Shown here: positions 32,635 through 36,283 of the stretch, one piece after another
Layout of the letters: the number at the start of each line of letters is the position of its first letter
Position numbering within the stretch: position 1 is the first letter of the stretch
Source of the DNA: Alphaproteobacteria bacterium
Lineage (GTDB): Bacteria > Pseudomonadota > Alphaproteobacteria > SMXP01
Assembly (NCBI GenBank): GCA_028285305.1
Contig: JANQPV010000041.1
Coordinates: 1-41,479, forward strand
Length of the DNA: 41,479 nucleotides
Direction of reading: 5' to 3'
The notes under the pieces: model-generated
Told to the model about the DNA's origin: nothing
Database searches by the model: none
The model's input: the letters and a program-made list of their open reading frames with translations, nothing else
Program-made: the position numbers and the translations under genes

Positions 32635-34032
32635 TTATTCGGAAGGCGCTCCGAATCCCACAAATTTCCAGCGAACATCCTTGTAGTTGTCGACTGGATC
32701 GTAGATGTCCGTCGGCAGTGCGAGCCCTTGTGCCGTCAGCGAACCGATCGCCGATAGCAGTTGATAAGACGTAACATATTCGTCTCTTTGGGCAGCAACC
32801 AAGGCAACGCGAGAATCGAGGAGCTCCTGTTCAGCATCAAGGACGTCCAAGGTTGTCCGGGAACCGACTTGGGCCTCTTGCTGCACCCCTTCAAAGGCAA
32901 CGGTGTTCGCTCTGACTTGTTCCTTGTTTGCCACGATGGACGCTCGGGCGGCCAAAAGGTTGTTCCAAGCGGTCGTTGTTGACTGAACCACGCTGCGCTG
33001 AGTTTCCGCAACTTGCAGCCTCCGCTGATTGCGAACATGCTTTGTTTGGCGAATAGCTGAGTAGTTTGTACCCGCCTGGTAGATTGGCATCGACACCTGC
33101 GCGGTCGCTGTAGCTTGGTAGTTTTGGCTTTGATCGCGATTGGTCAGCTCGTCTTTTTGCAGGGTCCCTTGAATTTCAAGACTCGGCAACAGCGCTCCCG
33201 CAGCATCCCTAACGTCATACTTTGCGGCGGTTTCCGTTTCCTTCGCGGAGACGACAGTTGGGTTACTGTCTAGGGCGCTTTTCACCGCTTCTTCGAGGGT
33301 TTCGGGGAGAGCGGGCACTGCCGGCGCCTGATCTAAGCTTGCGGCAGGAACACCGACGATCTGTTCGTACGATGCAAGACTCTGGGCCAGCTGCGCTTCG
33401 GCGCTCGACAAGGCGGCACGCGCACCGCTGAGCCGCGCTTCGGCCTGAGATACGTCCGTACGGGTGATCTCGCCGACCCGGAACCGGTCTCTTGAGGCCT
33501 GCAGCTGTCGGGAAAGAACGTCAACATTGTTCTTGCGGAGATCGACGGTCGCACGATCGCGAATGACATCCATATAAGCCGTGACCACACTCAAAAAGAC
33601 CTGTTGCTCCGTTTCCGTCAGACTGGCCCTGCCTGCGCGGACCTGAGCATCGGCGGATTTTGTCGAAAAGAAGTTCCGTCCGCCGCGAAAAATGGGCTGG
33701 GTCGCGACCACACTTGCGGCATATCCCTCTGTGTAGTCATTATCTTCAACAGAGGTAGCGTTGCCCAGGAAGCGAGCAATCTGCCTCTGACTTTCGGTTA
33801 TCGTATACGAACCATTGATCGTGACCGTCGGTTTCCAGCCGGCACGCGCTTGGTTCGAATTTTCATCCGTCGCGCGCTGCCGCGCACGGTCGGCAAGCAA
33901 CGTTGGATTAGAATTGTAGGCTGCGACGAGCGCGTCTTGCAGCGAATCGCTTAACACCGGTGTGGTCGCACTCATATAGAGCGCGGCCGAGGCAGCACCC
34001 AGAAAGAGCGTCGTTCGTTTTGATCTACCCAT
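32635..34032 (-). CDS. tolC: TolC-family outer-membrane efflux and type I secretion channel
   Basis: Outer-membrane trimeric channel for drug efflux and type I secretion. The 465-residue product has an N-terminal signal peptide, then two homologous repeats of long helices and beta strands (DALVAAYNSNPTLLADRARQ; EEAVKSALDSNPTVVSAKE), as in TolC. The duplicated SNPT segment marks each repeat. It follows the PCMT-family gene with about 170 bp between, and that gap includes a TTAA-N7-TTAA site. No periplasmic adaptor or pump gene is nearby, so it may serve several export systems. Confidence 0.93.
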   Translation of the reverse strand: MGRSKRTTLFLGAASAALYMSATTPVLSDSLQDALVAAYNSNPTLLADRARQRATDENSNQARAGWKPTVTINGSYTITESQRQIARFLGNATSVEDNDYTEGYAASVVATQPIFRGGRNFFSTKSADAQVRAGRASLTETEQQVFLSVVTAYMDVIRDRATVDLRKNNVDVLSRQLQASRDRFRVGEITRTDVSQAEARLSGARAALSSAEAQLAQSLASYEQIVGVPAASLDQAPAVPALPETLEEAVKSALDSNPTVVSAKETETAAKYDVRDAAGALLPSLEIQGTLQKDELTNRDQSQNYQATATAQVSMPIYQAGTNYSAIRQTKHVRNQRRLQVAETQRSVVQSTTTAWNNLLAARASIVANKEQVRANTVAFEGVQQEAQVGSRTTLDVLDAEQELLDSRVALVAAQRDEYVTSYQLLSAIGSLTAQGLALPTDIYDPVDNYKDVRWKFVGFGAPSE

Positions 34033-34090: not shown

Positions 34091-34106
34091 GTTAAATATC
34101 ATTTAA
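34091..34106 (-). promoter_or_regulatory. Possible CtrA-type site upstream of tolC
   Basis: On the minus strand this reads TTAAATGATATTTAAC, matching the CtrA consensus TTAA-N7-TTAAC, about 60 bp before the tolC ATG. The surrounding DNA is AT-rich, so a chance match is quite possible. Confidence 0.3.
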
Positions 34107-35074: not shown

Positions 35075-35148
35075 GGCCACGTGGCGGAGTGGTGACGCAG
35101 CGGACTGCAAATCCGTGTACCCCGGTTCGATTCCGGGCGTGGCCTCCA
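35075..35148 (+). tRNA. tRNA-Cys (GCA)
   Basis: A complete cloverleaf: acceptor arms GGCCACG and CGTGGCC, anticodon loop CTGCAAA giving GCA, T-arm CCCGG-TTCGATT-CCGGG, discriminator U73 (a cysteine identity element), and an encoded CCA. It is a single-gene unit on the plus strand, with a recognisable promoter just upstream. Confidence 0.97.
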
Positions 35149-35203: not shown

Positions 35204-35794
35204 CTATTCGAAGTCCTCTATCCCGTCCAAGTCGAGACTTTCGACATACGCCACCTTGTTGTCTTGGGTGGCTGTTCCCTCTAACGTTACGAGTTTCGTT
35301 CCCAGACCAATTCGCAGGTCGCCCTCCTGGGCGACCACTTGTTGACCATTGATGCGCAAAATTGTGGCCCCGCTCGCTTGGGCAAAGCTTGGATTGGCAA
35401 ATATGGCCCCCAATTGAGACAAGATCGGCGAGTCGACAACGATCGAGACCGTCACCTGCTCTCCGTCTTTCGAGTATTGCCGGCTGGCATTGAGGCCGCC
35501 TCCGAATGCGCCGGCGTTTGTGTTCTGAACATCAGCCGCCGTCCAGCCGTCTAGCGGCTCAGGCAACAAGGTGCTCAAGGCCTCTAATCGCTTTTGTGCA
35601 ACCAGTTGTTGAAGATAGTCCAGGTCCTGTTTGACGTCTCCGTAATCTCCGTCCGCGTAGCGCCCTTTCATTTCCTCGACGACGGTCAGAAACTCATCCG
35701 TTTGATCATCTTGGTTCTGCGCTGCGTCCTGGGCCAACGCGCCCGAGACAACGCCAATCGCGAACACACTTGCAACCGTTAATGTGCGAATCAT
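35204..35794 (-). CDS. Secreted protein of unknown function
   Basis: I do not recognise a named family. The 196-residue product has a clear signal peptide (MIRTLTVASVFAIGVVSGALAQ), so it is probably periplasmic. An acidic helical segment follows (about 30-75, DLDYLQQLVAQKRLEALSTLL), then the phrase LLPEPLDGWTAADVQN, and a second half rich in beta-strand patterns (QVTVSIVVDSPILSQLGAIF; ATILRINGQQVVAQEGDLRI). There are no cysteines after the signal and no membrane segment. The ATG is preceded by GAGGT. It stands alone: tRNA-Cys lies downstream on the other strand, and about 400 bp of non-coding sequence upstream probably holds its promoter. Confidence 0.8.
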   Translation of the reverse strand: MIRTLTVASVFAIGVVSGALAQDAAQNQDDQTDEFLTVVEEMKGRYADGDYGDVKQDLDYLQQLVAQKRLEALSTLLPEPLDGWTAADVQNTNAGAFGGGLNASRQYSKDGEQVTVSIVVDSPILSQLGAIFANPSFAQASGATILRINGQQVVAQEGDLRIGLGTKLVTLEGTATQDNKVAYVESLDLDGIEDFE

Positions 35795-36021: not shown

Positions 36022-36037
36022 TTAACCATTTGTTAAC
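36022..36037 (+). promoter_or_regulatory. CtrA-type binding site
   Basis: TTAACCATTTGTTAAC is a full match to the CtrA consensus TTAA-N7-TTAAC, and its first half, TTAACCAT, is the half-site form used in several alphaproteobacteria. Another TTAAC follows at 36053. The distance to the hairpins beginning at 36058 suits a promoter in which CtrA occupies the -35 region. Confidence 0.55.
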
Positions 36038-36057
36038 CAAAACAAACCAAAGTTAAC

Positions 36058-36131
36058 GTGTCTTCCCTTGAAGACACCCCACCATTTACCCAACGACTTG
36101 GGGCCGCCTCTCCGGCGGCCCCCTTTCTTTT
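36058..36131 (+). ncRNA. Candidate small RNA, two hairpins with strong terminator
   Basis: No coding frame explains this segment, yet it looks like a compact transcript. It opens with a perfect 8-bp hairpin (GTGTCTTC, loop CCTT, GAAGACAC; 36058-36077). A 22-base single-stranded C-rich linker follows (about 36078-36099), then a perfect 9-bp GC-rich hairpin (36100-36122) and a T-rich tail. The linker is C-rich and could pair with Shine-Dalgarno sequences, as in some alphaproteobacterial small RNAs. A CtrA-like box lies just upstream. The 5' end is inferred, not observed. I match it to no known RNA family. Confidence 0.5.
36100..36131 (+). terminator. Strong rho-independent terminator
   Basis: Stem GGGGCCGCC / GGCGGCCCC (9 bp, perfect), 5-base loop TCTCC, then CTTTCTTTT. 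Only the plus strand has the T-run. No plus-strand protein gene precedes it; the nearest plus-strand gene is tRNA-Cys, about 950 bp away. It therefore implies an unannotated transcript. Confidence 0.8.
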
Positions 36132-36207
36132 AACCGGGTGTTTTCTCTTTCACACTAGATCTTGCGCTCGGTTGTCATTATATGGCACAGACTAAACATT
36201 CTCCTAA

Positions 36208-36283
36208 TCCCCGGTAGCTCAGTTGGTAGAGCAAGCGGCTGTTAACCGCTGGGTCGTTGGTTCGAGTCCGACCCGGGGAGCCA
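36208..36283 (+). tRNA. tRNA-Asn (GTT)
   Basis: A complete cloverleaf: acceptor arms TCCCCGG and CCGGGGA, D-arm GCTC-AGTTGGTA-GAGC, anticodon stem GCGGC with loop anticodon GTT, discriminator G, and an encoded CCA. It marks the boundary between the conserved housekeeping region and the gene-poor accessory stretch to the right. I found no second copy of its 3' end in the window that would indicate an integrated element. Confidence 0.97.

What the first reader, a model, noticed from the sequence alone, without database searches (positions are those of the whole stretch)
36022..36131. Unannotated CtrA-linked small RNA candidate between a secreted-protein gene and tRNA-Asn
A strong plus-strand terminator has no gene in front of it. 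Immediately upstream are a perfect 8-bp hairpin, a C-rich single-stranded linker that could pair with Shine-Dalgarno sequences, and a full CtrA consensus site at the distance expected for a -35 element. Together these describe a transcript of about 74 nt under cell-cycle control. The hairpins and site are read directly; transcription and CtrA control are inferred.
Basis: partly seen in the sequence, partly recalled or inferred. Interest (0 to 1): 0.75.

Follow-up and report, generated by a model that had tools for sequence, protein, structure and literature searches.

The report
Conserved CtrA-promoter small RNA (CC0196 type)
[quoted passage not shown] its targets are still unknown.

Summary
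Hairpin, C-rich linker, terminator and TTAA-N7-TTAAC site are at the stated places, and the RNA folds far better than shuffles (z -7.2). The element recurs upstream of tRNA-Asn in 14 other sampled genomes of the class, plus divergent ones. A named-genome scan gave 118 loci: Caulobacter, Phenylobacterium, Maricaulis, Hyphomonas, Rhizomicrobium and uncultured Alphaproteobacteria. 105 lie near tRNA-Asn/Cys; 104 of these have the CtrA site (78 perfect, 26 with one mismatch) 38-40 nt before the stem, against 34 full sites in 21,000 random places. A conserved -10 element puts the start at G36060, giving a ~71-nt RNA. Caulobacter and two Phenylobacterium members reach Rfam RF01519, 'Caulobacter sRNA CC0196' (36-80 bits, cut-off 35). 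Its C. crescentus copy, CCNA_R0004, is an expressed sRNA with its own promoter (PMC6237742). The window's copy scores 15 bits, hence unannotated. So this is a divergent ortholog of a known but uncharacterised sRNA. New here: its breadth and near-invariant CtrA promoter. Base-pairing to G-rich translation starts is likely but unproven; ctrA mRNA is not favoured as target.

The parts
36022..36036 (+). CtrA box TTAACCATTTGTTAA (TTAA-N7-TTAA), -38 to -24 from the inferred start
   Evidence: kept in 104 of 105 syntenic homologs at -38/-39/-40
36048..36053 (+). -10-like element CAAAGT (A at -11, T at -7)
   Evidence: A 96% and T 86% at these two columns in 73 homologs; both together in 79 of 104 loci at this phase
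36060..36060 (+). inferred transcription start (G)
   Evidence: Spacing from the conserved -10 and CtrA box; stem pairing is conserved only from here inward; not measured
36060..36131 (+). sRNA gene, about 71 nt, ortholog of Caulobacter CC0196 / CCNA_R0004
   Evidence: fold z -6.6
36060..36075 (+). 5' hairpin, 6 bp GTCTTC/GAAGAC with loop CCTT (the DNA could form 8 bp from 36058)
   Evidence: Paired in essentially all of 88 distinct homologs
36076..36099 (+). C-rich single-stranded linker ACCCCACCATTTACCCAACGACTT, proposed seed
   Evidence: Near-invariant ACCC(C)ACCA core; unpaired in the fold
36100..36131 (+). intrinsic terminator: 9-bp G-C stem and T-rich tail
   Evidence: 9 of 9 pairs show double changes in homologs, 96% of cells paired; T-run in 101 of 102 loci
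35075..35148 (+). tRNA-Cys, upstream syntenic marker
   Evidence: same order in many relatives
36208..36283 (+). tRNA-Asn, downstream syntenic marker
   Evidence: downstream of the RNA in 101 loci, 127-1916 nt away

Best explanation
This is a free-standing small regulatory RNA gene of about 71 nt (36060-36131), a divergent ortholog of Caulobacter sRNA CC0196 (CCNA_R0004). Shown by conservation: a full CtrA box over the -35 region at -38, a weak -10 element at -12 to -7, a short 5' hairpin, an almost unchanging C-rich single-stranded linker, and an intrinsic terminator. Inferred from known CtrA promoters: phosphorylated CtrA recruits RNA polymerase, so the RNA is made mainly in predivisional or late-growth cells. 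Inferred from the anatomy: the linker ACCCCACCAUUUACCC pairs with G-rich translation starts of target mRNAs and blocks ribosomes, while the hairpin and terminator protect the ends. Identity as a CtrA-promoter sRNA gene: about 0.95. Translational repression by base-pairing: about 0.6.
For: Homologs at the same tRNA locus in many genomes. CtrA box at a fixed spacing in 104 of 105 against 34 in 21,000 at random; the clear chance hits in other phyla lack both tRNAs and box. -10 signature A-11/T-7. Published activating CtrA full sites have their 5' end near -35, for example -39 at ctrA P2 (PMC4287350). CtrA is encoded in all 17 member genomes checked, 86% identical to the query in the own genome. 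Terminator covariation is far above shuffles and slid controls. Relatives pass RF01519. CCNA_R0004 has its own promoter and lies between CCNA_00197 and CCNA_00196 (PMC6237742); it is annotated 'Cell cycle regulated' with one CtrA half site (PMC5988900). Loop lengths of 2-6 nt rule against coding.
Against: No expression or CtrA-binding data for this organism. The time course listed for CCNA_R0004 is low and without a clear phase (5.5, 3.9, 8.0, 4.8, 12.8, 2.2, 3.7, 4.2; PMC5988900). The published size of 133 nt exceeds 71 nt and is close to the distance from the inferred start to tRNA-Asn in C. vibrioides OR37 (134 nt), so read-through or processing at the tRNA is possible. No conserved mRNA target was found. 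Stem 1 barely varies, so covariation there is thin.
Confidence: 0.78

Rival explanations
1. The element is a leader or attenuator of tRNA-Asn: transcription starts at the CtrA promoter, partly reads through the hairpin, and supplies tRNA-Asn after processing.
For: tRNA-Asn lies downstream in 101 loci, mostly 127-215 nt away. CCNA_R0004 is listed as 133 nt, about the distance from the inferred start to tRNA-Asn in C. vibrioides OR37 (134 nt).
Against: Terminator kept in 101 of 102 loci and strongly covarying. Distance varies to 1916 nt, with long open frames in between in some loci, for example a 346-aa frame in L099. The linker is more conserved than an attenuator would need.
Confidence: 0.12
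2. It belongs to the alphaR8 / suhB (MmgR, SisA-D) family of C-rich sRNAs.
For: Best sub-threshold Rfam hit for the window: suhB, 20.9 bits, similar layout of 5' hairpin, C-rich linker and terminator.
Against: Below the 41-bit cut-off; the linker lacks the CCUCCC core of the suhB consensus. The locus is tRNA-Asn, not the N-formylglutamate amidohydrolase gene typical of that family (PMC12559287). Relatives score over the cut-off with CC0196 instead.
Confidence: 0.03
3. The conserved thing is the DNA: a CtrA box working on the divergent gene or the chromosome, with the RNA incidental.
For: The box is the most conserved upstream feature; a divergent gene starts at 35794 in the window.
Against: The RNA core and terminator are conserved too, and a -10 element sits at the right spacing only on the RNA side. 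tRNA-Cys is only 139-300 nt upstream in many relatives, leaving little room for such a divergent gene.
Confidence: 0.04
4. A small protein is encoded (frame 36058-36195, 45 aa).
For: An open frame exists.
Against: Loop lengths of 2, 3, 4, 5 and 6 nt and one-base linker indels shift the frame among homologs; the frame runs through the terminator.
Confidence: 0.01

Closest known systems
Caulobacter sRNA CC0196 (Rfam RF01519; CCNA_R0004 in NA1000)
   Same: Same locus (tRNA-Asn downstream), same GAAG-R-CACCC-ACCA core, hairpin, linker, terminator; linked by intermediates scoring 36-80 bits
   Different: The window's copy scores 15.2 bits (cut-off 35). It has a full CtrA box where C. vibrioides OR37 has TTAG-N7-TTAA. 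The Rfam model starts in the first loop and lacks the 5' arm.
CcnA (CCNA_R0094), CtrA-activated ncRNA of Caulobacter
   Same: CtrA-linked ncRNA using a CCCC stretch (PMC8959179)
   Different: Different gene: 182 nt, transcribed from the chromosomal origin (PMC4287350), listed beside CCNA_R0004 as a separate RNA (PMC5988900). Pairing of this sRNA with the own ctrA 5' region is not special (rank about 12-13 among 39 window starts).
alphaR8 / suhB (MmgR, SisA-D), RF00519
   Same: C-rich linker between a 5' hairpin and a terminator
   Different: Score 20.9 of 41 bits, different core and locus
EcpR1 of Sinorhizobium
   Same: Trans-sRNA acting on cell-cycle genes in an alphaproteobacterium (PMC4414408, abstract only)
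   Different: Not compared by sequence here

Membership tests
RF01519 CC0196 | Score at or above Rfam's gathering cut-off (35 bits) | tested here: not met
   Window 15.2 bits. Met by relatives at the same locus: 79.7, 70.7, 52.1, 45.1, 36.3, 36.0. The model is Caulobacter-centred and lacks the 5' arm.
RF01519 CC0196 | Homology through intermediates with continuous sequence and structure similarity | tested here: met
   One covariance model built from the window's close relatives finds Caulobacter, Phenylobacterium, Hyphomonadaceae and the window together
RF01519 CC0196 | Same genomic place, upstream of tRNA-Asn | tested here: met
RF01519 CC0196 | Transcribed as a separate RNA | not testable with these tools
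   Shown for C. crescentus CCNA_R0004 (own promoter, PMC6237742), not for this organism
CtrA-activated promoters | TTAA-N7-TTAA over the -35 region | tested here: met
   At -38 from the inferred start; 104 of 105 homologs
CtrA-activated promoters | CtrA encoded in the genome | tested here: met
   G000:C27:52693-53295, 86% identity
CtrA-activated promoters | CtrA binding and dependence in vivo | not testable with these tools
   Needs ChIP-seq or depletion
suhB / alphaR8 (RF00519) | Score at or above the gathering cut-off (41 bits) | tested here: not met
   20.9 bits
suhB / alphaR8 (RF00519) | Conserved CCUCCC-type core in the linker | tested here: not met
   Linker reads CAUUUACCCAACG against CGUUUcCUCCCU of the model
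CcnA | Sequence homology to CCNA_R0094 | not tested
   CcnA sequence not retrieved; separated by locus and by separate listing in PMC5988900

The most novel reading that the evidence does not exclude
An ancient, single-copy arm of the CtrA cell-cycle circuit: a CtrA-activated sRNA whose linker has stayed nearly unchanged across Caulobacterales, Hyphomonadaceae/Maricaulis-type bacteria and Rhizomicrobium-type lineages, controlling a core set of mRNAs at their start codons (the seed complement contains AUGGUGGG), and so giving CtrA a conserved post-transcriptional output.
Probability: 0.4. Interest if true: 0.78.

Novelty: new member of a known kind. Interest (0 to 1): 0.58.

Why it matters
CtrA is the best-studied cell-cycle regulator of Alphaproteobacteria, and the RNA arm of its regulon is known mainly from one RNA, CcnA. 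This RNA has a CtrA promoter conserved in nearly every homolog, across far more lineages than its Rfam entry covers, and it already has a name and an expressed copy in the model organism. That makes its role directly testable: deletion, CtrA depletion, and target capture in Caulobacter. The Rfam family should also be rebuilt with the missing 5' arm and a wider seed.

Tried and rejected
Target search by seed complement. TAAATGGTGGGG with one mismatch gave no excess over the reversed control in 7 genomes. The one exact extra hit in the own genome, at the start of a CoA-transferase-like frame (G000:C51:13116), has no counterpart among the exact hits in relatives. ATGGTGGGGTG in four genomes gave the RNA itself plus five sites without a shared start-codon role; L261 and L266 look alike but lie inside a longer frame. 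Duplex energy with the own ctrA start was -13.2 kcal/mol, rank about 12-13 among 39 window starts, so ctrA is not favoured. The RNAalifold consensus on the raw MAFFT alignment was poor because the terminators were misaligned; a padded alignment fixed it. Model R1 was built from a first padded version (A3) in which four terminators were off by one base; it still recovers all members. Weak model hits without the locus (L065, L067-L072) were set aside as chance. Landt 2008 is not held. No text on small RNAs in the Hyphomonas CtrA ChIP-seq paper. CCNA_R0004 is not named in the main texts of the Hfq papers.

Full report
Observation. The 74-nt stretch folds to -32.8 kcal/mol, z -7.2. The region lies between a leftward 196-aa gene (35204-35794) and tRNA-Asn (36208-36283). 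No Rfam family reaches its cut-off there. The CtrA pattern alone is not rare in this genome: 27 matches against 46 for the reversed control. So conservation had to decide.

Conservation. A DNA search with the tRNA-containing stretch already showed a second conserved block at query 80-147, ahead of tRNA-Asn. The RNA alone was found in 15 of 385 genomes of the class, own included, by BLAST and in 25 by a covariance model, the weakest of which are chance. In those loci where both ends are present it sits between tRNA-Cys and tRNA-Asn. The block GAAGACACCCCACCA is invariant in 14 genomes. The CtrA box stands at the same distance upstream, with TTAA halves almost unchanged.

Named relatives. Of these, 105 lie near tRNA-Asn or tRNA-Cys: Caulobacter, Phenylobacterium, Maricaulis, Hyphomonas, Woodsholea, Hirschia, Hellea, Glycocaulis, Rhizomicrobium, Aquidulcibacter, a Parvularculaceae MAG and many uncultured Alphaproteobacteria. 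Clear chance hits in Bacteroides, Myxococcus, Rhodopirellula, Rhizobium and others have neither tRNA nor CtrA box. At least one of the 13 loci without a nearby tRNA also has a full CtrA box at -38 (L158, a Phenylobacterium locus at the edge of the stretch held) and is probably genuine.

Promoter. In 104 of the 105 loci a TTAA-N7-TTAA box (78 perfect, 26 with one mismatch) begins at -38, -39 or -40 from the G of GTCTTC. Random places in the same loci gave 34 perfect boxes in 21,000 trials. In the 73 loci with spacing -38, two further columns stand out: A at -11 (96%) and T at -7 (86%), the two most conserved positions of a sigma-70-type -10 element (the role of those positions is general knowledge). 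Both together occur in 79 of 104 loci at this phase, against 1-11 at most others; the exceptions at -13 and -14 fall on the CtrA box itself. This puts +1 at G36060. In C. crescentus, full CtrA sites whose 5' end lies near -35 activate transcription in predivisional cells, with -39 at ctrA P2 as an example (PMC4287350). CtrA is encoded in all 17 member genomes tested (the query was the C. crescentus CtrA sequence as I recalled it).

RNA structure. On 88 distinct homologs 91% of pair cells are standard pairs, against 70% in shuffles and 39-52% when partners are slid; 283 cells show double changes against 95. Nearly all of this comes from the terminator, where all nine pairs covary. Stem 1 is almost invariant, with one U-A to C-G change and a few G-U pairs. 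The alignment was fitted to the model, which favours the structure somewhat. The T-run is present in 101 of 102 loci. Loop lengths from 2 to 6 and one-base linker indels rule against a coding reading.

Identity. One intermediate (G280, L064) passes Rfam RF01519, 'Caulobacter sRNA CC0196', at 36.0 bits against 35. Caulobacter members reach 79.7, 70.7 (C. vibrioides OR37) and 52.1, and two Phenylobacterium members 45.1 and 36.3. The window's copy reaches only 15.2, and the Rfam model begins in the first loop, lacking the 5' arm. In NA1000 the RNA between CCNA_00197 and CCNA_00196 is CCNA_R0004: own promoter, 133 nt, raised 3.7-fold after mitomycin C but not specifically (PMC6237742). It is annotated 'Cell cycle regulated' with one predicted CtrA half site (PMC5988900). 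That CC0196 and CCNA_R0004 are one RNA rests on this flanking-gene match. In C. vibrioides OR37 the box reads TTAG-N7-TTAA, which would be scored as one half site. The window element is therefore an ortholog by sequence chain, structure, locus and promoter, but not a formal Rfam member.

Mechanism. Shown by conservation: promoter, RNA, terminator, linker. Inferred: CtrA activates it, and the linker acts by base-pairing. The linker core ACCC(C)ACCAU is complementary to AUGGU(G)GGGU, which could cover a start codon or a G-rich ribosome site. My searches for a conserved target were negative, and the own ctrA leader is not favoured, so a CcnA-like effect on ctrA is not supported. The main rival, a tRNA-Asn leader, draws on the 133-nt published size, but conserved terminators and loci with long open frames between RNA and tRNA speak against it.

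Verdict. The RNA is a divergent ortholog of a known, uncharacterised sRNA. What appears new is the breadth of the family, its full 5' structure, and a CtrA promoter kept in nearly every member.

Noticed in passing
G000:C51:207162-207229 (L047, L074): A second, diverged copy in the window's own genome (34.1 bits with model R1), stem GTGCCTT/AAGGCAC (U-A changed to C-G), between a TetR-type regulator and a nicotinamide-nucleotide adenylyltransferase-like gene, without a CtrA box upstream and with a weak terminator.
   Followed up: partly
window 34091-34106 (-): Another TTAA-N7-TTAAC match (TTAAATGATATTTAAC) 59-74 nt upstream of the leftward TolC-like gene (32635-34032).
   Followed up: no
Rfam RF01519 against L064 and L153: The Rfam CC0196 model starts in the loop of the first hairpin, so it lacks the 5' arm and misses most of the family.
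   Followed up: yes
L153 (Caulobacter vibrioides OR37): The distance from the inferred start to tRNA-Asn is 134 nt, close to the published 133-nt size of CCNA_R0004; read-through cut at the tRNA 5' end, or an annotation artefact.
   Followed up: partly
L171 (uncultured Caulobacter): Two tRNA-Asn genes in a row downstream of the sRNA, at +134 and +345.
   Followed up: no
L150, L166, L177 and similar: In several relatives a small leftward frame encoding a hydrophobic peptide lies between the sRNA and tRNA-Asn.
   Followed up: no
G000:C51:13116-13127 (L243): A CoA-transferase-like frame whose start GGTAAATGGTGGGG is perfectly complementary to 14 nt of the linker; not seen among exact hits in relatives.
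   Followed up: partly
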